Below are positions 18,725 to 30,784 of a stretch of 64,000 nucleotides of DNA, piece by piece; the stretch's first letter is position 1, and each line of letters starts with the position of its first letter. The stretch lies in assembly GCA_018401695.1 (NCBI GenBank), contig JAGYKD010000001.1, positions 722,016-786,015 on the forward strand. The letters run 5' to 3'. Below the pieces are notes generated by a model, which saw nothing but the letters and a program-made list of their open reading frames with translations, was not told the DNA's origin and made no database searches. Made by a program: the position numbers and the translations under genes. Source of the DNA: Flavobacteriales bacterium (GTDB lineage: Bacteria; Bacteroidota; Bacteroidia; CAIKAF01).

Positions 18725-18916
18725 CCCAGCAGCCACAAGAAAGCTGCGCTTCATTCGCTGAGGAACCGTAATGCAACGCATTTGCTTGAGGGGGGGTCTG
18801 ATTTCCGGGTCATACAGGAGTTGCATGGGCATAAGAGCAGCAAGACAACAGAGATTTACCCGCATATTAGCAACCGGCTGCTCCAAAAGATTCGTATACC
18901 TTTCAATGACTTGTGA
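18725..18916 (+). pseudogene. tyrosine recombinase (integrase), C-terminal remnant
   Basis: No intact gene is present, but the frame from 18731 to the TGA at 18914-18916 encodes the last 61 residues of a Bacteroidota-type tyrosine recombinase. Visible are the HSLR motif (catalytic His and Arg), NATHLLEGGSDFRVIQEL, the GHKSS box with the second catalytic His, and TTEIYPHIS with the nucleophile Tyr, ending NRLLQKIRIPFNDL. Relatives read LRHSFATHLLE and IYTHVS at these positions. Nothing of the N-terminal DNA-binding or core portion is recognisable before 18725, so it is a decayed 3' end. It marks the left edge of the AT-rich island and implies acquisition by site-specific recombination. Confidence 0.82.
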
Positions 18917-18985
18917 AAACAACTTATCTTAGCAAAGATTAACCGAATGAGGTAAACCATCACTTTGCCTACCATTGAGGGTGGA

Positions 18986-19008
18986 TAAATGAGGTTCAGC
19001 CTCATTTA
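18986..19008. repeat. 9-bp perfect hairpin downstream of the integrase remnant
   Basis: TAAATGAGG (18986-18994) pairs with CCTCATTTA (19000-19008) around a 5-base loop. It lies 70 bases after the integrase stop, where integrases of cassette-type systems often have their own attachment site. GC content drops sharply from here on. It has no T tract, so it is not a typical terminator. An attachment-site role is only a guess. Confidence 0.4.
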
Positions 19009-19118
19009 AAAACGAGTTGTGGGCAAATTTTAGTATTGCCTCGTCCTAAAATAGGTTGACCAAAAATTAAACAATAAATATATTTGTTTATAAACTTAGA
19101 GTTTTTACTCCATTTTCC

Positions 19119-19154: not shown

Positions 19155-19883
19155 ATGAATACAGAAAAATTATTAAAGTTGTATGAAAATGAATTTAATG
19201 CAAATGGATTTTACACCCTACTGCATCATTTACGCCAAAATTCTCCTAATGAATATAGCAACAGAGAATTTTACTTGGGAGAGACAGTCCAGTTACAGAA
19301 TTCGAAGGTAAAGGAATCAAATTTAGATAATAATGTTAAGGTAGAAAAGAATGATATTCGAATAGATATGCCAATTTTACTTGGCAATACAAAAGCTAAA
19401 AAACGCATTATGATTCTTGGTCTTGAACCTAGGCATACAAATGACTTTTACAATATAATGAAAGTGGGAAATCAGGTTTTCGCAACTCCATTTGGTATCG
19501 ATAGGTGGTATTCTAAAAGCAAACAGAGTATTTATGGAAGCGCTTTTAAGAAATTTCTAAATGAGAATAGACTTTTCTTATTTTCTGACTTTGTAAAAGA
19601 ATATAAAGTAATTGACCCTACTTTGAAAGGTGGCAATGATAAAAAAGCAAGACAAGATTTCAGTAAAGTATTTAATGAAAAGTATATCCACTTTCTTGAA
19701 AAGGAGATAGAAATGTTCTCACCTGATTTGATTATTGGGCTCGGTAAAACTGATATAAACAAATACGTGCCCAAATCATGGCTTGAAAAATTCAAAGTTA
19801 AAGTTATCTCTCACCCTACAAATGGAAATTTCCCTAAAATGCAAAAAGCAATGGAAGAAATTATCCAAAAAACAGCGTTATAG
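19155..19883 (+). CDS. uracil-DNA glycosylase-superfamily-like protein (tentative)
   Basis: A 242-residue protein. The strand MILGLEPRHTNDFYN (about residues 85-100) sits where UDG-superfamily enzymes have motif A. DLIIGLGKTD and the later ISHPTNGNFPKMQKAM segment resemble the second strand and the HP-containing motif B loop of these enzymes. If correct, it would remove a modified or deaminated base from DNA. The match is by pattern only, and the residue that activates water is not certain. Base composition is strongly AT-rich, unlike the flanking host genes. It is the first gene after the integrase remnant and 56 bases upstream of the SLOG gene. Confidence 0.55.
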   Translation: MNTEKLLKLYENEFNANGFYTLLHHLRQNSPNEYSNREFYLGETVQLQNSKVKESNLDNNVKVEKNDIRIDMPILLGNTKAKKRIMILGLEPRHTNDFYNIMKVGNQVFATPFGIDRWYSKSKQSIYGSAFKKFLNENRLFLFSDFVKEYKVIDPTLKGGNDKKARQDFSKVFNEKYIHFLEKEIEMFSPDLIIGLGKTDINKYVPKSWLEKFKVKVISHPTNGNFPKMQKAMEEIIQKTAL

Positions 19884-19938
19884 ATATTTTGCAGCTACCC
19901 ATTTAACTTATAGACTATTATTAATTAAAAGAGATGCT

Positions 19939-20538
19939 ATGGTCTTGACATTAAATGATTTTATCACTCTTTATGACAAAGATGATTCCATAATCCTTCT
20001 TGAAGGCAAAAGAACTGTTTCAATCAAAGACAAAGAAAAGCTGTTTACGCTAGGTAAACTACTTGCAAACAGCACTCAAAAAATTATCTTTAGAAGCGGT
20101 AATGCAGATGGTTCTGACCAATTATTCTCTAACGGAGTTGCAGCGATTGATTCTAAGAAATTACAAGTTATAACTCCATATTCAGGACACCGACAAAAGA
20201 CAAATCAAGCATTTGAAACAATTTCTCTAGAGGAAATAAACATTGCTGCTGAACCAGAAGTATTATATCAATCAAAAGCTAATAAGAAAACCAATAAGCT
20301 AATTGACCAATTTGTTTCAGGAGAGCATAATAAAGTTACAATTAAGGCTGCATATATAATTAGAGACACTATAAAGGCAATTGGCACTGATAAAATCAGA
20401 CCAGCTACTTTCGGCATTTTTTATGATGACCTTGAAAATCCTGTATCAGGAGGAACAGGCCACACAATGAATGTTTGCAAACAAAATAACATCCCAATAA
20501 TAGATCAAACAACATGGTTTAAATGGTTAGAAGAATAG
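19939..20538 (+). CDS. SLOG-like Rossmann-fold protein (DprA/LOG-related nucleotide-sensing fold)
   Basis: A 199-residue protein. IILLEGKRTVS (about residues 17-27) followed by KIIFRSGNADGSDQLFSNG (about 47-65) fits the SLOG/LOG superfamily, where a GSR strand and a G-x-ADG-x-D loop bind a nucleotide or its derivative. The C-terminal part with PVSGGTGHTMNVC and IPIIDQ closes the Rossmann sheet. SLOG proteins are often sensors or effectors in conflict systems, but here no effector domain is fused. The start at 19939 is chosen because the longer frame overlaps the upstream gene by 100 bases. It lies between the UDG-like gene and a small unknown gene. Confidence 0.62.
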   Translation: MVLTLNDFITLYDKDDSIILLEGKRTVSIKDKEKLFTLGKLLANSTQKIIFRSGNADGSDQLFSNGVAAIDSKKLQVITPYSGHRQKTNQAFETISLEEINIAAEPEVLYQSKANKKTNKLIDQFVSGEHNKVTIKAAYIIRDTIKAIGTDKIRPATFGIFYDDLENPVSGGTGHTMNVCKQNNIPIIDQTTWFKWLEE

Positions 20539-20594
20539 AGTAAGATCAGTTACATCTTTTTATATAGTAAGTACATTTAAAGTCTAATTAATAA

Positions 20595-21005
20595 ATGCAA
20601 GATATGTCTCAAGAGTTAATTGATAGAGCAAAAAGAGGAATCCAAGAATTGAGTTCAAAACATTCTAAGCTGAATGATGACATTGACAATATAGCCTTTG
20701 CAGAAGAGTATGAGATACAAGCTGAAATGATTATTCTAGAATATTGTTTAAACAAAAATTATGAAGTCAATGGGTTTTCGCCAATATTATTAGCAGACAA
20801 TGAAGAAGTTGAAGATATTAATAACTACTTAGAGAAACTAAGACTTTACTTTGACTTACTTTCTATTAAAAATAAAGATGTTGCAGAATTATGGCTCTAT
20901 TATCAATCAATATTCTGGCCTGATTATATTGAAACGGAAGATGAGATGATTGCTCGAATACATCAGCAAATTGACAGCGGCAAATTTTACAGAATAGATA
21001 TTTGA
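20595..21005 (+). CDS. small acidic helical protein of unknown function
   Basis: A 136-residue, largely alpha-helical acidic protein with no recognised domain. Its pattern (AEEYEIQAEMIILEYCLNK, ELWLYYQSIFWPDY) suggests a compact helical bundle. It is the last of three AT-rich genes that run in the same direction, 56 bases after the SLOG gene, and is followed 12 bases later by an attC-like hairpin. The position, at the 3' end of a cassette-like block, is the main clue. No function can be assigned. Confidence 0.6.
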   Translation: MQDMSQELIDRAKRGIQELSSKHSKLNDDIDNIAFAEEYEIQAEMIILEYCLNKNYEVNGFSPILLADNEEVEDINNYLEKLRLYFDLLSIKNKDVAELWLYYQSIFWPDYIETEDEMIARIHQQIDSGKFYRIDI

Positions 21006-21017
21006 TAAAATAAGCCC

Positions 21018-21068
21018 ATAACAGCGCACAGCCGCCATTAAAACGGACGGCTGTGCGCGAGACGTTAT
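21018..21068 (+). other. attC-like recombination site (cassette 3' end)
   Basis: ATAAC (21018-21022) and GTTAT (21064-21068) are complementary outer boxes. They enclose an 11-bp perfect stem (GCGCACAGCCG, 21024-21034, with 21048-21058). Inside, CC pairs with GG around a short loop, leaving A21047 unpaired. Integron attC sites have this layout: outer R''/R' boxes ending AAC and starting GTT, inner complementary boxes, and extrahelical bases. It directly follows the stop of the 136-residue gene, as attC follows the gene of a cassette. No integrase gene is intact nearby. An ordinary terminator is less likely, since no T run follows. Confidence 0.5.
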
Positions 21069-21138
21069 CGCTCAGTGTAAAAGACAACGACAGAAATAAA
21101 AATGAAAGACAGAAATAAAAAGCCAACCGCACATTCAG

Positions 21139-21188
21139 GCACATCTGCATGCCCAACGCACGGGCGACCGCTTCGCAAGCAAAAGAGC
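21139..21188 (+). repeat. left copy of imperfect direct repeat flanking the five-gene operon
   Basis: The segment runs from GCACATCTGCA, through CGCAC and CGAC, to GCAAGCAAAAGAGC (50 bases). A corresponding segment at 28321-28373 reads GCACATTTGCA, then CGCAC, CGAC and GCAAAAGAGC. The two lie just outside the operon start and stop. Sequence of this kind at both borders is consistent with cassette boundaries left by site-specific recombination. Confidence 0.5.
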
Positions 21189-21228
21189 CAAATTTTCCCA
21201 CCCACAGAAAGAAATTTTTAGAGCGACA

Positions 21229-21257
21229 TTGTTTGGCGTTTCACCAAGATAGTTTTG
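21229..21257 (+). promoter_or_regulatory. predicted promoter of the five-gene operon
   Basis: TTG at 21229-21231 and TAGTTTTG at 21250-21257 (fit to TAnnTTTG) are separated by 18 bases, close to the 19 expected for the Bacteroidota housekeeping promoter. The predicted transcript would begin near 21264, with the ATG at 21284. This favours 21284 over 21149 as the ATPase start. Confidence 0.5.
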
Positions 21258-21283
21258 TAGCAGAAATTAAAAAAGACATCGGT

Positions 21284-22987
21284 ATGGCAAACGCAACACT
21301 TAAACAATTAATAATCAACAGCATTGGTTTGGTTTATAACTTGGCAGAGAAATCTAAGTTAGACGATTCATTATTTGAACAAACAGACAAGGAACTTTCA
21401 TTTCTTGCCGATTACTTTCACATTACCAAGTCGCAAGCACTTTTAATTGCTGTTATTTTTACTTTGAATTACAAAGGGCGCAAGGTTGATTTAGATGATT
21501 TGAATTCACATTTTGAATGTAATCCAATGAAACTTCTTGAATATAGCGATGACTTTGTTGAGTTATATGAAAAACGTTTGCTACGCAAAAACAACAAAAG
21601 CAATAGACACAGACAAATAAAACTCAAAGGTGTGGACGAAGAGTTTTGTATAAACGAATTAGTTTCTGAAAAAATACTTAAAAGCGAACCTATTCCTGAA
21701 ATTTTGATTGATGTTGTGAAATATGAAGACATATTCACTTTACTTGAAAAACTATCCGAATTAGGCGAGCAACGAGATAACGATGAAATTACAACAAGAG
21801 AATTGTTTGAGCAGACTCAAAGCATTATAGATGAGAACATCCATTTTGAACTTATTCAGAGAACGAGGTTTTTAGGAACATCTATTGAAGAAAAATATTT
21901 GTTTTTATACGTTGTTTGGAAATTTCTTGAAGGCGACAAAGACCCTTGGGTTGAACGAACTTTCAAAGGGATTTATGACAGACCAAACGAACGATTTACC
22001 CAAATACAAAGGTTTTTAACCAAAGAAAACAATCTGATTAAAGAAGATTGGTTAGAAATAGAAGATGCAGCTTTTTTTGATGATGCTAAAATGAAACTCA
22101 CAGAAAAAGCATTAGACCTACTATCCGACTGCGACATTAAATTATTCAATAAGGATTTAGACAAAAAGAAAAAAGAAAACGTAATTCTGCCCGACAGTGT
22201 GCCATTCCGTGAACTAATTTATAGTGATGAAGAAGCACATCAATTAGATTTATTAAAAACTCTTTTGGTTGAAGAAAATTTTAAAAACACGCAAGAACGA
22301 TTAGTAGAAAAAGCATTACCAAAAGGTGTAACAGTATTGTTGCACGGTGCACCAGGCACAGGAAAAACGGAAAGTGTTTTACAAATTGCCAAAGCTACAA
22401 ACCGAGAAATTATGAAAGTTGATATTAGTGCATCACGCTCAATGTGGTTTGGTGAAAGCGAAAAAATTATCAAACAAGTTTTTAAGGATTATAAATCCTA
22501 TGCAAAAGGACTACAAGCAACACCTATCTTGTTCTTCAATGAAGCTGATGCAATAATTGCTAAACGCAAAGAGGCAAATACTTCAAATGTGAGCGATACA
22601 GAAAACAGAATTCAAAATATTTTGTTGGAAGAAATTGAAAACTTTGAAGGCATTTTAATTGCAACAACCAACTTAGCAAACAATATGGACAACGCATTTG
22701 AAAGGCGTTTCTTATTCAAAGTTGAATTCAAAAAACCAAGTGTTTCTGCCAAATCACAAATTTGGAAATCCAAATTACCACATTTATCAAATGATGATTG
22801 TGAATTGTTGGCTTCTCAGTTTGATTTTTCGGGCGGACAAATTGATAACATCGTTCGTAAAAACGAAATCAACGAGATTATTCACGGCAATAAAGTTGAT
22901 GTAAAAACGCTTTTTGAATTTTGCAAAGAAGAAACACTAAGTAATCAGTTTTCAAGAACTCAAATTGGATTTAAAAGAAGCAACTAA
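21284..22987 (+). CDS. AAA+ ATPase (FtsH/spastin-like module) of the putative defence operon
   Basis: A 567-residue protein. The N-terminal half (about 1-310) is helical and unassigned. The C-terminal half is a AAA+ module with Walker A HGAPGTGKT (about 352-360), Walker B ILFFNEADAI (about 414-423), in which Asn precedes the catalytic Glu, sensor-1 ATTN (about 459) and ERRF arginine-finger region (about 471). The start at 21284 sits 27 bases after a -7 box; an upstream extension of 45 residues reads through repeat-like DNA and is less likely. Its stop overlaps the exonuclease start (TAATG). Related ATPases occur alone in Bacteroidota, so its role as a remodeller for this system is inferred from position. 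Confidence 0.85.
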   Translation: MANATLKQLIINSIGLVYNLAEKSKLDDSLFEQTDKELSFLADYFHITKSQALLIAVIFTLNYKGRKVDLDDLNSHFECNPMKLLEYSDDFVELYEKRLLRKNNKSNRHRQIKLKGVDEEFCINELVSEKILKSEPIPEILIDVVKYEDIFTLLEKLSELGEQRDNDEITTRELFEQTQSIIDENIHFELIQRTRFLGTSIEEKYLFLYVVWKFLEGDKDPWVERTFKGIYDRPNERFTQIQRFLTKENNLIKEDWLEIEDAAFFDDAKMKLTEKALDLLSDCDIKLFNKDLDKKKKENVILPDSVPFRELIYSDEEAHQLDLLKTLLVEENFKNTQERLVEKALPKGVTVLLHGAPGTGKTESVLQIAKATNREIMKVDISASRSMWFGESEKIIKQVFKDYKSYAKGLQATPILFFNEADAIIAKRKEANTSNVSDTENRIQNILLEEIENFEGILIATTNLANNMDNAFERRFLFKVEFKKPSVSAKSQIWKSKLPHLSNDDCELLASQFDFSGGQIDNIVRKNEINEIIHGNKVDVKTLFEFCKEETLSNQFSRTQIGFKRSN

Positions 22988-23466
22988 TGACATCATTCAC
23001 CGCCATAGATTTTGAAACAGCACATCCGCAAAAGTGGAGTATTTGCCAAGTTGGTTTGGTTCGTGTAGAAAATGGAATTGTATCTGAAAAAATTTCATTA
23101 CTGGTTCAACCACCGAAAAATTTTTATTGGGGTAAGTTTATAGACATTCACGGAATTACGCCCGAACAAACAATTACAGCACCAACTTTTGAAATAGTTT
23201 GGCAAAAGATTGAACCTTTTATTAAGGAACAAATTGTTGTTGCTCACAACGGTTTTGCGTTTGATTTTCCTTGTTTGAAAAACGCATTAGCATATTACGA
23301 CATTACAGAGCCACGTTACCAAAAACATTGTACTTACAAACTTTACAAGAAAAACTTAGCGACACTTTGCCAAGAAAACAATATTTCGCTAAACCACCAC
23401 GATGCATTGAGTGATGCAAATGCTTGTACAGAGTTATTTAATTTGTATTTAAGAAGAAATAATTAG
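22987..23466 (+). CDS. DnaQ-like 3'-5' exonuclease (DEDDh)
   Basis: A 159-residue stand-alone exonuclease of the DNA polymerase III epsilon/PolC type. Catalytic residues are in place: Asp8 and Glu10 in AIDFETA, Asp93 in HNGFAFDFP, and His138 and Asp143 in HHDALSDA. The length fits an enzyme with only the catalytic core. Its start overlaps the ATPase stop, and its own stop is one base from the DUF262/HNH gene, so the genes are probably translated together. It would degrade DNA (or RNA) from 3' ends; in this operon it may extend damage made by the HNH nuclease. This is inference. Confidence 0.9.
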   Translation: MTSFTAIDFETAHPQKWSICQVGLVRVENGIVSEKISLLVQPPKNFYWGKFIDIHGITPEQTITAPTFEIVWQKIEPFIKEQIVVAHNGFAFDFPCLKNALAYYDITEPRYQKHCTYKLYKKNLATLCQENNISLNHHDALSDANACTELFNLYLRRNN

Positions 23467-23467
23467 A

Positions 23468-25153
23468 ATGAAAAACAGCAACAACATAACAATAAAAACA
23501 ATCAGCGAATTGCTTAAATGTGATTTCTTTATTCCAACGTATCAAAGAGGTTATCGTTGGACAGAGCAACAAGTAACTGAATTATTGAATGACATCAATG
23601 AATTTTCACCAAAGGAAATTCCTAATTCGAATGAAAAAACTTGGTATTGTTTGCAACCAATTGTTGTAAAACTAAAATCTAAAAATGAATGGGATGTGAT
23701 AGATGGACAACAACGACTTACGACAATTTATTTGATTTTATATTATTTAAATCAAAGATATACAGAAGAGGGCAGAACCAAACTATTTGAATTAGAATAT
23801 GAAACACGTGTAGGTTCAGCTAATTATTTAAAAAATGAATTAGGTAAAAATGAAGAAGACAATACCAACATTGATTATTTCCACATTTCAGTTGCATATC
23901 GAACTATTAAAAATTGGTTCAGAGAAAACAAAGTTGAAAAATCATTTGAACCAAAATTCTATGATTCCACAAAAGTTATTTGGTATGAAACTTCAACAAA
24001 TGATGATTCTATTGATATTTTCACAAGAATCAATAGCGGTAAAATTCCGCTGACAAATGCCGAATTGATTAAGGCTTTGTTTTTAAATAGTTCAAATTTC
24101 GCAAAAGCAGACAGCGAAAAACTACGTTTAAAACAATTAGAAATTGCTTCAGAATGGGACAGAATTGAATATGCCTTACAAGACGATTCTTTTTGGTATT
24201 TCATCAACAAAAATGGAAATAAATTGGCAACGAGAATAGAGTTTATTTTTAATTTAATGTCAGACAAGCCAAGTGATGACAAATATTCCACTTTCCATTT
24301 CTTTAATGAAAAATTTAAAACCAAATCAGAAAAAGAAATAAACGACAATTGGCAGGAAATTAAAAAGTATTTCCAAACTCTTGAAGAGTGGTATAATGAC
24401 AGAGAATTGTATCATAAAATTGGTTATCTAATTGCGATTGGAACTAATATCAAAAACATTCTTAAAGAGAAAAAAGAAAAAACCAAAACGGAGTTTTCAA
24501 ATTGGATAAACCAAGAAATAAAATCCAAATTTAGAAACGTGAATTTGGAAGAAGTAGAATATAACGGAGGCTATGTGCGTGAAATTTTATTGCTACACAA
24601 CATTCAAACAATGCTTAACAACGAAAACGAAACTAATCGTTTTCCTTTTGACCGTTACAAAAAAGAATCTTGGGACGTTGAACACATTCACGCTATCGCA
24701 ACAGAAGTTAATGTGAAAATAGAAAATCAAATTGAGTGGCTAAAAAACAACTTCATCAAAACAGACAATCATCACAACGTGGAGTTAAATGATCGAATTG
24801 AATTCATAAAATCAGGCAAAACAATTGATGAAAATGAATTTGAAGACATTGTTGATTATGTATTGGGCCAAGAAGATAATAGCTTACGAAACCTGTGTTT
24901 ATTAGATAGTGGAACTAATCGTTCTTACAAAAACGATTCTTTCAAAGAAAAAAGAAAGAAAATAATTGAAAGAGAAATTGAAGGAACTTTTATTCCCATT
25001 TGCACAAAAAATGTTTTTATGAAATATTATTCAGCAAACGTGCAAGACATTGAAGTTTGGAATGAAAAAGATAGAACTTCATATTTTGAAAAAATACAAA
25101 AAGTAATCAATCAGTATTTACCTCAAATGACATTGGCAGAAAATGAGCAATAA
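23468..25153 (+). CDS. DUF262 + HNH (DUF1524) protein, GmrSD-like type IV restriction family
   Basis: A 561-residue protein combining an N-terminal DUF262 (GmrS-like) NTP-using domain and a C-terminal DUF1524 HNH-type nuclease (GmrD-like). The DUF262 motifs are IPTYQRGYRW (22-31), DGQQRLTTI (79-87) and RINSGKIPLTNAELIKALF. The nuclease carries VEHIHA near 404-409 and the distal LRNLCLLD with an Asn and basic residues near 472-500. GmrSD enzymes cleave modified phage DNA and use nucleotide hydrolysis. Histidine instead of the common proline follows HI in the HNH core, a small variation. It is encoded one base after the exonuclease and overlaps the next gene by 11 bases. Confidence 0.88.
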   Translation: MKNSNNITIKTISELLKCDFFIPTYQRGYRWTEQQVTELLNDINEFSPKEIPNSNEKTWYCLQPIVVKLKSKNEWDVIDGQQRLTTIYLILYYLNQRYTEEGRTKLFELEYETRVGSANYLKNELGKNEEDNTNIDYFHISVAYRTIKNWFRENKVEKSFEPKFYDSTKVIWYETSTNDDSIDIFTRINSGKIPLTNAELIKALFLNSSNFAKADSEKLRLKQLEIASEWDRIEYALQDDSFWYFINKNGNKLATRIEFIFNLMSDKPSDDKYSTFHFFNEKFKTKSEKEINDNWQEIKKYFQTLEEWYNDRELYHKIGYLIAIGTNIKNILKEKKEKTKTEFSNWINQEIKSKFRNVNLEEVEYNGGYVREILLLHNIQTMLNNENETNRFPFDRYKKESWDVEHIHAIATEVNVKIENQIEWLKNNFIKTDNHHNVELNDRIEFIKSGKTIDENEFEDIVDYVLGQEDNSLRNLCLLDSGTNRSYKNDSFKEKRKKIIEREIEGTFIPICTKNVFMKYYSANVQDIEVWNEKDRTSYFEKIQKVINQYLPQMTLAENEQ

Positions 25154-27383
25154 TCCGACATCAAAAAAATTAAATTTTCTGCAATTGCTTTCTAACGAGG
25201 AGGCTATTTATGAAAATGAAGCTTGGCAACCGCTAAGTAAAATTGAAATTCCAATTATACAACGAGATTACGCACAAGGCAGAGAGGGTAAGGAGGAACT
25301 ACGGAAAAATTTTTTGACCGCTTTACTTGAAGCTGTTAATGGTAGACCATTGGAATTAGATTTTGTTTACGGTAGTGTTAAAAAGGATAAAGAGAATAAT
25401 ACAACTTTACACCCGCTTGACGGCCAACAAAGATTAACAACATTGTTTTTGTTGCATTGGTTTGTTGCAGTTAAAGAAAACAAGTTAAATGATAATGAAA
25501 AAAATCTTTTGACAAAATTCACTTACCAAACACGAACAAGTTCAAGAGAATTTTGCTTTGACTTAATCAACAAAGGAATTGACTTTAACAAAATATTAGA
25601 AACAGATTACTACGATGAACAAAAAAATAAACCAAAGAACAATGAGCTTTCCAAGACTATAATTGACAGTTCTTGGTTTTTCATTTCTTGGAAAAGAGAC
25701 CCGACAATAAAATCAATGCTCACTATGTTGGATTCTATTCAGCATACTTTTAAGGATACAAAGGAAGTATGGGATAAACTAAACAACATTAGTTTTCATT
25801 ACATAGAACTACAAAACTTTGGACTTTCTGATGATTTGTATATCAAAATGAATGCAAGAGGTAAACCTCTTACTGATTTTGAGAATTTTAAAGCAAAGTT
25901 TGAGCAACATATAAACAAAGAGTGTTGGGAAGTTGGCGTAGAAGCGACAGAAACATTTTCACATAAAATTGATACACTTTGGACGGATTTGTTTTGGAAT
26001 TATCGTGATAAAACCGAAAATGTTTTTGACGAACAGCTTTTGGATTTTTTCAGAACAATGGCTGTAATTAATTACACACTAAAAGCCCCAAAAGACGATA
26101 AATTCAGAGGAGTAGTTGATTTATTGAGAGGCGGTCAAAAAGTTTCATTCAATCAATATTTGGAATTAGGTTGTTTTGATAAGGATTATTTCAAAACGCT
26201 AAAATCAGTTTTAAATAAAATAGCTGATAAAAAGGGATTGAAGGAATTTCTTTCCGATACAACTTTTACGAATGAGAAAGAAATTTTTAGGGGTGCGATA
26301 CAAAGCAATTTGTCATATCCCGATTTGGTTATTGCTTTTGGCTACTACCAATATTTAGCATCGGAAGAAATCATTGAAACAGAAAATCTGAATAGTTGGT
26401 TACGTATCGTTCACAATCTTGCAGAAGGTAGCAGGCCTTACTTATTCAACAATGCTAATGAATTTGCGAACGCTTTACGTTCTATTAATGAATTGTTACC
26501 CAACAGAAATTCCATTGTTAAACATTTCGCAGAGACACAAAGTAATACACTTTCGGGTTTTATCAGCGAACAAGTGAGCGAAGAAAAGCTAAAAGCAAAA
26601 CTCATTTCAGGAAGTGATGATTGGAAAAAAGTTATTATTGAAATTGAAAATCACAGATACTTCAAAGGACAAATCGGCTTTATTTTAGATTGGTGTAAAG
26701 ACGAAAACGGAATACACAATATTGATATATTCAAAGAATACGCAGGAAAAGCAAAAGCCGTATTTAGTAATGACGGATTGAAAAACTTTGACAATTATCT
26801 TTTTGAAAGAGCATTGTTAGCAACAGGAGATTATTTGTTGAGAAAAGGTAGAAATTACAGTTTTTTGATTAACAATGAACGTGATATAAGTTGGAAAAGA
26901 TTATTGAGAGATAGTAATGATAAACGATTAGTGTTAAAAACACTTTTTGATAAAATTGAGCTAACAACTCTAAGTGAAAACTTAGAACAAATCGTTAAAG
27001 ATTTTTCTGATAAAAATGATTGGCGTTATTATTTCATTAAACATTATGAAATTATTGACAATTGCGGAAATCAAAAACTTATTCGATTTAACGATGAAGA
27101 TGGATATGATATTCTTTTGTTGGGGTCAACAACTACAAGCGGCTACCATAAAGAATATTATTCATATTCACTTTTTGTGGATTTAAAAATCAACCAATCC
27201 AATATTTCATATTACGACCAACGTTCAGTGAATGATTGGAAATATTTTGAAATTAACGGAAAACAAATTGCTTTTGATTGTAAGTCTGTAAAATATGTTT
27301 GGACACAAAACAACGATTGGAACAGCAAACAAGAATTTGAAAACAGAGAAAAGGCAATTTTAGAACTGACAGGAACGAATTAA
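25143..27383 (+). CDS. second DUF262 protein, long form without a visible nuclease
   Basis: A 746-residue protein with a divergent DUF262 domain: IPIIQRDYAQGR near residues 37-48, PLDGQQRLTTLFLLHWF near 95-111 and LYIKMNARGKPLTDFENFKA near 236-255. The RDYAQGR wording is typical of a different DUF262 branch from that of its neighbour. The C-terminal 450 residues are mostly helical. No HNH, PD-(D/E)XK or other catalytic motif could be recognised there. Its ATG lies 11 bases inside the upstream gene, and its stop is 2 bases before the WYL gene, so it is tightly coupled. It may be a sensor or partner for the nuclease-bearing paralogue. Confidence 0.85.
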   Translation: MSNNPTSKKLNFLQLLSNEEAIYENEAWQPLSKIEIPIIQRDYAQGREGKEELRKNFLTALLEAVNGRPLELDFVYGSVKKDKENNTTLHPLDGQQRLTTLFLLHWFVAVKENKLNDNEKNLLTKFTYQTRTSSREFCFDLINKGIDFNKILETDYYDEQKNKPKNNELSKTIIDSSWFFISWKRDPTIKSMLTMLDSIQHTFKDTKEVWDKLNNISFHYIELQNFGLSDDLYIKMNARGKPLTDFENFKAKFEQHINKECWEVGVEATETFSHKIDTLWTDLFWNYRDKTENVFDEQLLDFFRTMAVINYTLKAPKDDKFRGVVDLLRGGQKVSFNQYLELGCFDKDYFKTLKSVLNKIADKKGLKEFLSDTTFTNEKEIFRGAIQSNLSYPDLVIAFGYYQYLASEEIIETENLNSWLRIVHNLAEGSRPYLFNNANEFANALRSINELLPNRNSIVKHFAETQSNTLSGFISEQVSEEKLKAKLISGSDDWKKVIIEIENHRYFKGQIGFILDWCKDENGIHNIDIFKEYAGKAKAVFSNDGLKNFDNYLFERALLATGDYLLRKGRNYSFLINNERDISWKRLLRDSNDKRLVLKTLFDKIELTTLSENLEQIVKDFSDKNDWRYYFIKHYEIIDNCGNQKLIRFNDEDGYDILLLGSTTTSGYHKEYYSYSLFVDLKINQSNISYYDQRSVNDWKYFEINGKQIAFDCKSVKYVWTQNNDWNSKQEFENREKAILELTGTN

Positions 27384-27385
27384 TT

Positions 27386-28303
27386 ATGTCAAAAAGAGGC
27401 TACATATCAAGATACCTGCTCATTCTAAAAAAGTTGAAAGTAAAGCCCTATTCAACCTATGAAGAATTACAGAACTATATTGAAAACCAATTTGACTACC
27501 TGCAAATGCAAGACGATACGCTTAATATTGGCTTTTCAAAACGGACATTGCAAAGGGATTTGAAAGAAATCAGAAATGTTTTTGGAATTGACATTGAGTA
27601 TTCAAAAACGAACAAAGGTTATTACATCAGCCAAAGCGAAACAGAAAATATGAACTTTCAAAGAATGATTGAAGCCTTTGATATGTTCAATTCATTAAAC
27701 CTTGCACAAGACTTGACACCTTTTATTCACTTGGAAAAACGCAGACCTCAAGGAACTGAAAACTTATATGGTTTGCTTCACGCAATCAAGAATAAACTTA
27801 AAATCAAATTCACATATCAGAAGTTTTGGGAAGAAGAAGTAAGCCAGCGTTTGGTTGAACCTTATGCGTTGAAAGAATTTAAAAATCGATGGTATATATT
27901 GGCGAAAGACAGCAAAGACAATAACATTAAAAGTTTCGCTCTTGACCGTTTAACAAATCTTGAAATCACAACGCAACATTATCAATATCCCGACAATTAC
28001 AGCATTGAACAAAGTTATCGTTATTGCTTTGGCATTATCAGTCTAAATGGTTCAGACCCGCAAGACATCATTTTATCGTTTGACCCATTTCAAGGCAAAT
28101 ACATAAAGACATTGCCGTTACACGAAACGCAGGAGGTTTTAGCGGACAACGACCAAGAAACGAGAATAAAACTCAAACTTTGTTTAACACACGACTTAGT
28201 TATGGAATTACTCTCATTTGGCGACAATATGAAAGTAATTGAACCAAAACAATTAGTAGATGAAATCAAAGAAGCACATAAAAATGCATACAAACAATAT
28301 TAG
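27386..28303 (+). CDS. WYL-domain transcriptional regulator
   Basis: A 305-residue cytosolic regulator. The N-terminal winged helix (about residues 5-75, including FSKRTLQRDLKEI) is followed by a WYL domain (about 135-205, with RWYILAKD replacing the W-Y-L core) and a C-terminal WCX-like extension. WYL proteins bind ligands such as nucleic acid fragments or nucleotides and are frequent regulators of CRISPR-Cas and BREX loci. It starts 2 bases after the second DUF262 gene and is the last gene of the operon, which suggests autoregulation of the whole unit. It is AT-rich like its neighbours. Confidence 0.9.
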   Translation: MSKRGYISRYLLILKKLKVKPYSTYEELQNYIENQFDYLQMQDDTLNIGFSKRTLQRDLKEIRNVFGIDIEYSKTNKGYYISQSETENMNFQRMIEAFDMFNSLNLAQDLTPFIHLEKRRPQGTENLYGLLHAIKNKLKIKFTYQKFWEEEVSQRLVEPYALKEFKNRWYILAKDSKDNNIKSFALDRLTNLEITTQHYQYPDNYSIEQSYRYCFGIISLNGSDPQDIILSFDPFQGKYIKTLPLHETQEVLADNDQETRIKLKLCLTHDLVMELLSFGDNMKVIEPKQLVDEIKEAHKNAYKQY

Positions 28304-28320
28304 CCGACACACAAGGTCAA

Positions 28321-28373
28321 GCACATTTGCAAACCGCACAAGCCGACACGCAAACCAAAGTTTGCAAAAGAGC
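28321..28373 (+). repeat. right copy of imperfect direct repeat flanking the five-gene operon
   Basis: Begins GCACATTTGCA, 18 bases after the WYL stop, continues with CGCACA and CGACACGCAAACC and ends GCAAAAGAGC. It matches the left copy at 21139-21188 in the order and spacing of its blocks. Copies are 7182 bases apart. CCCACGCAGACA beyond it also has a counterpart (CCCACCCACAGA) after the left copy. Confidence 0.5.
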
Positions 28374-28547
28374 TTGCCCTTTACCCACGCAGACAAAATT
28401 GAATTAAAAATAATCTCCTCCCCTGGATACAACGGTTCAAATAATGCCAGCGATTTCGGTTGGTTAGTGCCAGACTTTTCGGTTCAAAACGTGCCACTTT
28501 AAAAGATCAAGTAGAAAACTGCTATATCCCAGGACAAGAACTGAGGT

Positions 28548-28643
28548 ATGGCACATAAACTTGATCCCATGGATTTAAAACAAATCATTAGCCTCCGTCT
28601 AGACGGACTGAGTGAGATGCTCAACCTTTCTAGACTCCTTTAA
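28548..28643 (+). pseudogene. remnant of an IS21-family istA transposase start
   Basis: A 31-codon frame (MAHKLDPMDLKQIISLRLDG..., stop TAA at 28641) matches in style the N-terminus of IstA of Bacteroidota IS21 elements, which begin with a MDLKQII-R/T-L-HLDG-S helix before the helix-turn-helix. The homology stops after about 22 residues and no downstream transposase or istB is present. It is therefore a decayed insertion-sequence fragment close to the right border of the island. The frame is short, so the call is tentative. Confidence 0.42.
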
Positions 28644-29106: not shown

Positions 29107-30579
29107 TTACCACTCCACGTACACCACCCCGGCGGCGCCGTTGCCGCCCGATTCGCGGATGGACGCACTGTTGTATCCACCGGCGCCGCCCCCGCCGCCG
29201 TAACCGGCACCGCCTTTGCCACTCCAGCTTTGCGGACCATTGCCGCCCGAAGGACCGGCGTTGTTGATGAGTACGCCGCCGCCGCCGCCGCCGCCCGAAT
29301 GGGAGGAGTTCCCGCCCTGGCCGCCGGCACCCGCCGTGATGTTGTTTCGAATAAACTGCGTTAAACTGTTGGTAAAATTGCCTTGCCCTTGCCCAAAGGG
29401 TTGATTGCAGGACCCGCCGTTGCTGCCTCCCGTACCGCCATTTCCTCCCGGAGAACCGCCATTGCAGGACCCGCCGCCGCCCGACCCTCCGTTTTGCCCA
29501 CCCCCATTTACGGAGGTTACCACCTGGCCTCCATTGGCCGTTAACAAATTGCCGAAACTGCTGGCTTGCCCCGGGGAAATGCCTTGTATGTTGTTGGTAT
29601 TGAATACGGCAGAGGCTCCGGCACCTCCTGCGCCTACGGTCACCGTATAGTTCTGACCGGGGCTCACGGAATAGGTGCCCGTTTGTACGTATCCCGAACC
29701 GCCGCCGCCTTGGTGCCCGCTGGCTCCGCCGCCGCCGCCGCCCACACAAAGCACTCGAATTTGACTTATGCCTGGAGGCACGGTAAAGGTGCCGCCGGCC
29801 GTAAAGGTCTGAAACAACTGAACCGCCACCGAGACCGGCACGGTGGCCGTATTGGTAGTGCAAGCTCCCGCTACCGCAAACACGGAATAGGTCCCACTCA
29901 TGGTTAGCTGGGCATTGGGAATGGAAGGGTTCTGCGAGGTGCTGGTGAAATTGTTGGGGCCCGACCAAAAATAGGTAGCATTGGGCACGGTGGTAGCGTT
30001 CAATTGTATGGTATTATTGAGGCTTACGGGGCTATTGGAGCTTGCCGTTACCTGCGGTAGGGCAGGTGCCACGGATACGGATACCGAAGCCGGGGTGGAA
30101 ACGCAGCCGTTTTGACTGAGCACCACCTGATAATTGCCTGCTTGAGCGGCCTGAATCCCTTGAATTTGAACGCTTGCCCCGGAGGCGCTGAACCCGCCCG
30201 GCCCGGACCAAGCCGCGGTAGCCCCTTGGGGAGCATTTACCGAAAGGTTTAGGGTATCGCCGGAACAAAGGCTGGTGCTGCCGCTAATGACCGGATTTAA
30301 AGCGCATTGAAAACAGGATTGCAGCCAATTGTTGCCGTCCCACAAATTGATGCAGTCGGTGCTGGTATTCAAAATCATAAGCCCATAGGCCGGATTGGCC
30401 ATGGCGTTGCGTTGTTGCTCGGTCATGCGAGGAATGAGCATGCCTTTGGTGGTGTCGGCCACATCGAGCATGGCGCTGGGGTGCGGAGCAGTGCCGGAAG
30501 CGTTGATGCCAACGCCCTGCGCCACAGCAACAACCCCAAGAAAAAAAGGAAGCAAAAGAAAGACAAAACGAGTAGCCAT
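29107..30579 (-). CDS. secreted glycine-rich, Ig-like domain protein
   Basis: A 490-residue exported protein. The signal peptide (about 1-20, VFLLLPFFLGVVAVAQ) follows the ATG at 30579; a second in-frame ATG four codons upstream is equally possible, but the -7 box at 30601 lies too close to it. The N-terminal motif SAMLDVADTTKGMLIPRM resembles Bacteroidota structural/fibre-like proteins. Two Ig-like repeats follow (about 100-260). From about 285 a TVPPGISQIRVLCVGGGGGG segment leads into a glycine-rich, low-complexity region to the end. It lacks an obvious T9SS tail. Runs of CCG codon repeats make the DNA highly GC-rich here. It is likely a surface fibre or matrix protein. Confidence 0.8.
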   Translation of the reverse strand: MATRFVFLLLPFFLGVVAVAQGVGINASGTAPHPSAMLDVADTTKGMLIPRMTEQQRNAMANPAYGLMILNTSTDCINLWDGNNWLQSCFQCALNPVISGSTSLCSGDTLNLSVNAPQGATAAWSGPGGFSASGASVQIQGIQAAQAGNYQVVLSQNGCVSTPASVSVSVAPALPQVTASSNSPVSLNNTIQLNATTVPNATYFWSGPNNFTSTSQNPSIPNAQLTMSGTYSVFAVAGACTTNTATVPVSVAVQLFQTFTAGGTFTVPPGISQIRVLCVGGGGGGASGHQGGGGSGYVQTGTYSVSPGQNYTVTVGAGGAGASAVFNTNNIQGISPGQASSFGNLLTANGGQVVTSVNGGGQNGGSGGGGSCNGGSPGGNGGTGGSNGGSCNQPFGQGQGNFTNSLTQFIRNNITAGAGGQGGNSSHSGGGGGGGVLINNAGPSGGNGPQSWSGKGGAGYGGGGGAGGYNSASIRESGGNGAAGVVYVEW

Positions 30580-30600
30580 ATTTGGTTGCATGTTGGTACT

Positions 30601-30608
30601 CAAATATA
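30601..30608 (-). promoter_or_regulatory. -7 box (TAnnTTTG) of the glycine-rich protein gene
   Basis: Reads TATATTTG on the minus strand, 21 bases upstream of the ATG at 30579. The spacing supports this start over the one at 30591. A matching -33 element is not clear. Confidence 0.4.
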
Positions 30609-30784
30609 GCATCTTCATAGCACAAGACCTCCATTTCAACCTAGTTGATGTGCATGTGGCGGAAAACCAATTCCAAAGAAGATGCATGTAGCGAGGGCCC
30701 CGGTTCCAAGCCCTAGGTTTCAACCCAAGGTTTCAACCTAGGGATAATCCTCCTCCGTATGGGCTTCCGCTGCAGCCTCGCCGT

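What the first reader, a model, noticed from the sequence alone, without database searches (positions are those of the whole stretch)
21284..28303. Five-gene, translationally coupled operon: AAA+ ATPase, DnaQ-like exonuclease, GmrSD-like DUF262-HNH, second DUF262 protein, WYL regulator
Seen directly: five genes in one direction with overlaps or gaps of 1-2 bases (overlaps at 22987 and 25143-25153), low GC compared with both sides, and a plausible promoter at 21229-21257. Established: DUF262/DUF1524 proteins of the GmrSD group are type IV restriction enzymes for modified phage DNA, WYL proteins commonly regulate defence loci, and DEDDh exonucleases and AAA+ proteins recur in defence operons. 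I do not recognise this exact five-gene combination as a named system. Inference: the pair of DUF262 proteins may be a sensor/effector duo, with the exonuclease widening the cut and the ATPase remodelling or loading.
Basis: partly seen in the sequence, partly recalled or inferred. Interest (0 to 1): 0.88.

Follow-up and report, generated by a model that had tools for sequence, protein, structure and literature searches.

The report
Restriction operon carried as mobile cassette
Five bacterial genes form a portable, probably anti-virus operon built around a known kind of two-protein DNA-cutting pair (GrwAB-type), with an added nuclease, motor protein and regulator, and close relatives of it move between unrelated bacteria as one integron-like cassette.

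Summary
The five-gene operon is real and at the stated coordinates. Its core is a pair of DUF262 proteins: the first carries a C-terminal HNH nuclease, the second a long extension without one. This is the architecture, gene order and motif set of GrwAB, a two-protein type IV (modification-dependent) restriction system published in 2025, so the 'sensor/effector duo' is a known kind. The pair is adjacent in 31 of 31 loci examined, in five phyla, mostly without the other genes. The DnaQ-like exonuclease, AAA+ ATPase and WYL regulator are recurrent accessories; all five families meet in three places, in three different orders. New here: (1) the accessorised version, in which the ATPase alone is replaced between otherwise homologous operons; (2) carriage: relatives of the operon (7.47 kb) and of the bare pair (4.1-4.3 kb) are attC-bounded cassettes in several Bacteroidota; one 7,467-bp unit is 99.9% identical in two different bacteria with nothing shared outside. 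The window copy follows an attI-like site and an attC; its own attC was cut off by an IS21 remnant. Defence, specificity and the accessories' roles are inferred. Verdict: new variant of a known kind, moderately high interest.

The parts
18734..19022 (+). Broken tail of an integron-type integrase followed by an attI-like stretch; first cassette joins after ...ACGAGTTG
   Evidence: TIGR02249 positions 256-314, 51 bits; about a dozen similar tails in the genome, each followed by different DNA from the same point; DNA copies in G000 and one species of the same genus
21016..21070 (+). attC of the preceding cassette; operon cassette begins at the G|TT here (G at 21064)
   Evidence: Only attC found in the window, null 0; DNA hairpin z = -5.6
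21121..21273 (+). Conserved leader of the operon
   Evidence: 81.6% identical to L002 4197-4352 although the gene after it differs (alignment)
21284..22987 (+). AAA+ ATPase, 567 aa, classical remodelling AAA clade, Walker B with Asn-Glu
   Evidence: Pfam AAA 1.7e-25; alignments A4/A7; fold search
22987..23466 (+). DnaQ-like DEDDh 3'-5' exonuclease, 159 aa
   Evidence: RNase_T 2e-16; PADLOC DEDDh 3.4e-25; D8, E10 and the HxxxxD motif visible in the sequence
23468..25153 (+). GrwA-like protein: DUF262 + HNH/DUF1524, 561 aa; R83, H406, N475, N484
   Evidence: GmrSD_N 3.5e-33; motif residues in 16/16 relatives; match to SspE and other solved DUF262 proteins
25143..27383 (+). GrwB-like protein: DUF262 + long helical C-terminal part without HNH, 746 aa; R97
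   Evidence: GmrSD_N 6.4e-22; QR/DGQQR in 18/18 relatives
27386..28303 (+). WYL + WCX transcription regulator, 305 aa
   Evidence: WYL 1e-15, WCX 4.8e-10; 88.5% identical in L002
28304..28423 (+). 3' end of the cassette with an imperfect inverted repeat (28313-28381); attC itself missing
   Evidence: Homology with L002 continues to 28424; inverted repeat I11
28424..28613 (+). Left end of an IS21-type element (IstA start) that cut off the cassette's attC
   Evidence: 88-94% identical to the left part of an apparently intact IstAB element in L106

Best explanation
The operon encodes a GrwAB-type, two-protein, modification-dependent (type IV-like) restriction system with three accessories, moved as a single integron-type gene cassette. 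Most likely working: the DUF262 domains of both proteins bind and hydrolyse nucleotide and together recognise modified incoming (phage) DNA; the HNH domain of the first protein cuts it. These steps are inferred from GrwAB, where mutating either DGQQR motif or the HNH residues abolishes protection. The DEDDh exonuclease probably degrades DNA from the cuts so that breaks become irreversible. The AAA+ protein belongs to the classical protein-remodelling AAA clade (PAN, FtsH, Vps4) and more likely remodels a protein (the GrwAB complex, or a phage inhibitor bound to it) than DNA. The WYL protein, last gene of the operon, probably controls expression in response to a nucleic-acid ligand. Shown here: gene content, coupling, catalytic motifs, constant pairing of the two DUF262 genes, recurrent association of the accessories, replacement of the ATPase, attC-bounded transfer of close relatives. 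Inferred: defence, specificity, and every step of the accessories.
For: Architecture, gene order and catalytic residues equal those published for GrwAB, including the N-x8-N spacing in 16/16 relatives. Pair adjacent in 31/31 loci over five phyla. All five families together in the window, the Chryseobacterium balustinum plasmid and the Prevotella sp. E2-28 plasmid, in three orders at 26-62% identity. WYL in 10/31 pair loci against roughly 0.2 expected. Cassette: 7,467-bp unit shared at 99.88% by L002 and L009 only between G|TT points, with attC; 4.1-4.3 kb attC units for the bare pair. ATPase swap between conserved leader and exonuclease. AAA clade from the fold search.
Against: No direct comparison with the V. 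cholerae GrwAB sequences was possible. DUF1524 scores just below Pfam's cut-off. Most pair loci lack the accessories, so these may be neighbours rather than parts. No experiment. The window's own attC and an intact integrase are missing.
Confidence: 0.7

Rival explanations
1. Only the GrwAB-type pair is the defence system; exonuclease, ATPase and WYL are independent cassette passengers or a second system placed beside it.
For: Most pair loci have none of them; bare-pair cassettes exist; ATPase and WYL also occur together without the pair, e.g. beside type I restriction genes; the ATPase family is also found alone in many genomes and viral contigs.
Against: One-base couplings within the operon, the same combination assembled in three orders at low identity, exonuclease directly beside the pair in five loci, conserved leader before two different ATPases.
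Confidence: 0.25
2. The AAA protein is the sensor that licenses the nucleases, and its exchange changes what the operon responds to, as with swappable sensors in other defence systems.
For: The ATPase alone is replaced between homologous operons; its N-terminal 330 residues are poorly conserved while the AAA core is conserved.
Against: Bare pairs without any ATPase are common, and in GrwAB the pair alone senses and cuts (PMC12137116).
Confidence: 0.2
3. The operon is related to IetAS, an AAA ATPase plus subtilisin-like protease defence system, with the nucleases replacing the protease.
For: Best PADLOC hit of the ATPase is IetA, 2.5e-28; NCBIfam anti-phage ATPase model 89.5 bits.
Against: The match covers only the AAA core and is far below the curated cut-off (89.5 vs 510 bits); no protease gene in the operon or its cassette relatives.
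Confidence: 0.03

Closest known systems
[quoted passage not shown] cholerae; PMC12137116)
   Same: Two adjacent genes, DUF262+DUF1524 first, DUF262 plus long unknown C-terminal part second; QR, DGQQR and HNH residues with identical N-x8-N spacing
   Different: GrwAB is described as two genes only; here exonuclease, AAA ATPase and WYL are added and the unit is a cassette. Direct sequence comparison not done
TgvAB (V. cholerae VPI-2; PMC11411939)
   Same: Two DUF262 proteins, one with DUF1524, both required
   Different: Opposite gene order; TgvA is like GmrSD only in its N-terminal DUF262 domain; embedded in a type I RM operon
GmrSD / BrxU / SspE
   Same: DUF262 NTPase-sensor and HNH nuclease domains of the first protein
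   Different: Single-protein enzymes; here always with a second DUF262 partner
WYL regulators of defence loci (BrxR, CapW; PMC9122601, PMC9122588)
   Same: WYL + WCX regulator beside defence genes
   Different: Last gene of the operon, not a separate upstream or divergent gene as I recall for BrxR and CapW; no operator identified
Integron gene cassettes carrying phage defence genes (Vibrio chromosomal integrons and mobile integrons; reviewed in PMC12409362)
   Same: attC-bounded units inserted at G|TT next to an attI-like site; defence cargo
   Different: 4-7.5 kb operons of two to six genes instead of mostly one-gene cassettes; in Bacteroidota, where complete integrons were reported as nearly absent (PMC9024848); only broken integrase tails in G000

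Membership tests
GrwAB | Two adjacent same-strand DUF262 genes, nuclease partner first | tested here: met
   Window and 31/31 loci
GrwAB | GrwA: QR, DGQQR, FxxxN plus His-Me residues H, N, N | tested here: met
   R83, H406, N475, N484; N-to-N spacing 9 as in N521/N530; 16/16 relatives. Pfam GmrSD_C just under cut-off
GrwAB | GrwB: DUF262 with QR/DGQQR and extended C-terminal part without nuclease | tested here: met
   18/18 relatives, third motif is YxxxN; only GmrSD_N found by Pfam
GrwAB | Full-length sequence homology to V. cholerae GrwA and GrwB | not tested
GrwAB | Restriction of phages with modified DNA, both genes needed | not testable with these tools
   Needs plaque assays
TgvAB | Partner without nuclease encoded first | tested here: not met
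   Order reversed in all loci
IetAS | IetA ATPase over curated cut-off with adjacent subtilisin-like protease | tested here: not met
   89.5 vs 510 bits; no protease
Integron gene cassette | Unit bounded by G|TT with an attC at its 3' end | tested here: met
   Met for relatives L002, L005, L009, L004, L008, L010
Integron gene cassette | The same in the window copy | tested here: inconclusive
   Upstream attC and attI-like site present; own attC lost at an IS21 remnant
Integron gene cassette | Cognate intact integron integrase | tested here: not met
   No TIGR02249 match over cut-off in G000 or 59 relatives; integron-like tails only in G000

The most novel reading that the evidence does not exclude
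Bacteroidota carry a little-noticed integron-like traffic: about a dozen dispersed attI-like landing sites in one genome, each made of a decayed integrase tail plus attI, receive giant multigene cassettes (4-8 kb) that move whole operons between families. Among these, GrwAB-type restriction exists in bare and accessorised forms, in which an exchangeable AAA+ protein, a DnaQ-like exonuclease and a WYL regulator tune the pair.
Probability: 0.35. Interest if true: 0.75.

Novelty: new variant of a known kind. Interest (0 to 1): 0.57.

Why it matters
Why two-protein GmrSD-like systems need a second DUF262 partner is an open question (PMC11411939, PMC12409362). Naturally bare and accessorised versions at 70-88% identity make it testable what the exonuclease, ATPase and regulator add. 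The attC-bounded 7.5-kb units indicate that complete defence operons, not just single genes, can travel as cassettes, and they do so in a phylum reported as nearly free of complete integrons (PMC9024848). The dispersed attI-like sites give a place to look for more such operons.

Tried and rejected
AlphaFold of the GrwB-like protein had low confidence (pLDDT 63) and its fold search gave nothing usable. PDB sequence search with the GrwB-like profile found nothing convincing. No relative among phage records. The Bacteroidota promoter consensus does not exceed chance in the window. A first, too strict attC scan found almost nothing and was replaced by one that asks complementarity only of the parts that belong to one cassette; its threshold was thus chosen after seeing the first result, but the null stayed near zero. 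The leader as a WYL-specific operator was weakened: part of the L002-type leader also precedes an unrelated biosynthetic cassette in the same genome in which no WYL gene was found. IetAS and TgvAB membership were tested and not met.

Full report
OBSERVATION. The five ORFs, their strand, coordinates and couplings are as described. Domain assignments hold: AAA, RNase_T/DEDDh, DUF262 with a weak DUF1524, DUF262, WYL+WCX. The low-GC block runs from about 19.0 to 28.4 kb and holds three further genes: a UDG-superfamily protein at 19155, a gene at 19870 that looks SLOG-like to the eye (no Pfam match), and an unknown at 20595.

CORE PAIR. Searches with the fourth protein found relatives in genomes, plasmids and three contigs of the viral collection, none in phage records. 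In all 31 loci examined the GrwA-like gene lies immediately upstream of the GrwB-like gene on the same strand, usually overlapping or within a few bases. Hosts span Bacteroidota, Bacillota, Campylobacterota, Pseudomonadota and Actinomycetota. The QR, DGQQR, FxxxN and H..N-x8-N residues are conserved in 16/16 nuclease partners and QR/DGQQR in 18/18 second partners. The second partner has no recognisable HNH domain. This matches GrwAB as described in PMC12137116 (GrwA R81, H431, N521, N530; GrwB R86 with extended C-terminus; both genes needed; Tevenvirinae and Queuovirinae restricted; escape through dpdA). TgvAB (PMC11411939) has the opposite gene order. The GrwAB type is therefore well supported by anatomy, but the published sequences were not compared directly. 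Prevalence in the sampled Bacteroidota is low: 9 of 395 genomes and 10 of 395, the window's own genome included.

ACCESSORIES. WYL genes occur in 10 of 31 pair loci. The Bacteroidota background is about one per 2.8 Mb (roughly 120 matches in 99 genomes), so about 0.2 would be expected in stretches of this size (rough, since some loci are from other phyla and a few loci are related). The exonuclease abuts the pair in five loci (window, L002 group, L020, L030, L071) and the ATPase family is near it in four (window, L025, L030, L071). All five families meet in three loci with different orders: window ATPase-exo-A-B-WYL; Chryseobacterium balustinum plasmid exo-A-B-ATPase(split frame)-WYL; Prevotella plasmid WYL-exo-A-B-3 genes-ATPase. 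Protein identities to the window range from 26% to 62%, so these are not recent copies of one event. ATPase and WYL genes also occur together without the pair, e.g. beside type I restriction genes in L063, so the modules are portable.

ATPASE EXCHANGE. The window and L002 share the leader (81.6%) and everything from 22999 to 28424 (81.8%), but not the ATPase gene between. In L002/L005/L009 that place holds a different AAA protein (26% over the core only) and a 99-aa repeat protein that reappears in L020 next to WYL. The window ATPase resembles classical remodelling AAA proteins and its family has an invariant Asn-Glu in Walker B.

CASSETTE. L002 (a Bacteroidetes MAG) and L009 (Parapedobacter defluvii) share 99.88% identity over 7,478 aligned bases and nothing of the flanks. 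The unit between recombination points is 7,467 bp in both and 7,472 bp in L005. It begins G|TTATAG and ends with an attC of about 130 bp whose left core CTATAAC is complementary to that start. The bare pair is a 4.1-4.3 kb cassette of the same make in L004, L008 and L010. The attC scan found exactly these sites with a null near zero. In the window an attC ends the preceding cassette at 21016-21070. The operon's own attC is absent: homology stops at 28424, where the left end of an IS21-type element begins; an apparently intact element of this kind follows another attC cassette in the same genome (L106). Upstream, at 18734-19022, lies a broken integrase tail plus an attI-like stretch. Tails of this kind occur at about a dozen loci of G000, each followed by different DNA from the same point. 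Close DNA copies are found in one other species of the genus. No intact integron integrase was detected in G000 or 59 relatives. Complete integrons were reported in Bacteroidetes only from Salinibacter (PMC9024848).

MECHANISM (inferred). DUF262 domains of both partners sense modified DNA using nucleotide hydrolysis; the HNH cuts; the exonuclease digests from the ends; the AAA protein remodels a protein component; WYL controls expression. The first two steps rest on GrwAB/TgvAB experiments, the others on family knowledge only.

VERDICT. A real, mobile, probably anti-phage operon: a new variant of a known kind rather than a new kind. The accessorised form and the cassette carriage are the parts that go beyond what I found in the literature searched. 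That search covers open-licence papers only.

Noticed in passing
window 18734-19022; G000 C1, C12, C14 (L092-L105): About a dozen dispersed copies of a broken integron-integrase tail plus about 110 bp ending ...GAGTTG, in two sequence families, each followed by different DNA from the same point: dispersed attI-like sites in one genome; close copies also in one species of the same genus.
   Followed up: partly
L106 (G000 C12:203801-218000): An 8-kb multigene cassette (SLOG-like, glycosyltransferase-like, epimerase-like, asparagine-synthase-like genes) with the L002-type leader and attC, so large operon cassettes are not limited to defence.
   Followed up: partly
window 19155-21063: Preceding cassette with three genes: UDG-superfamily protein, SLOG-looking protein, unknown. 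A 68% identical relative of the second sits beside a homologue of the operon's ATPase in another genome (L068).
   Followed up: no
window 21140-21190 and 28313-28381; L002 3649-3741: Recurring imperfect palindrome of the form GCACATTTG..[stem]..CAAAAGAGC at ends and leaders of cassettes.
   Followed up: no
window 22533-22553 (ATPase residues 417-422): The ATPase family has an invariant Asn-Glu instead of Asp-Glu in Walker B (FFNEAD).
   Followed up: no
L063: ATPase (50%) and WYL (55%) homologues coupled to each other beside type I restriction-modification genes, without the DUF262 pair.
   Followed up: partly
G000 C1:547014-547214: The only other WYL gene of the genome lies about 3 kb downstream of another attI-like site (C1:550046).
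   Followed up: no
L007: Contig filed as a Limnohabitans MAG carries the Bacteroidota version of the pair (about 80% identity); possibly a binning error.
   Followed up: no
window 29107-30723, - strand: Very GC-rich (62%) stretch with a 538-aa glycine-rich ORF directly after the low-GC island.
   Followed up: no
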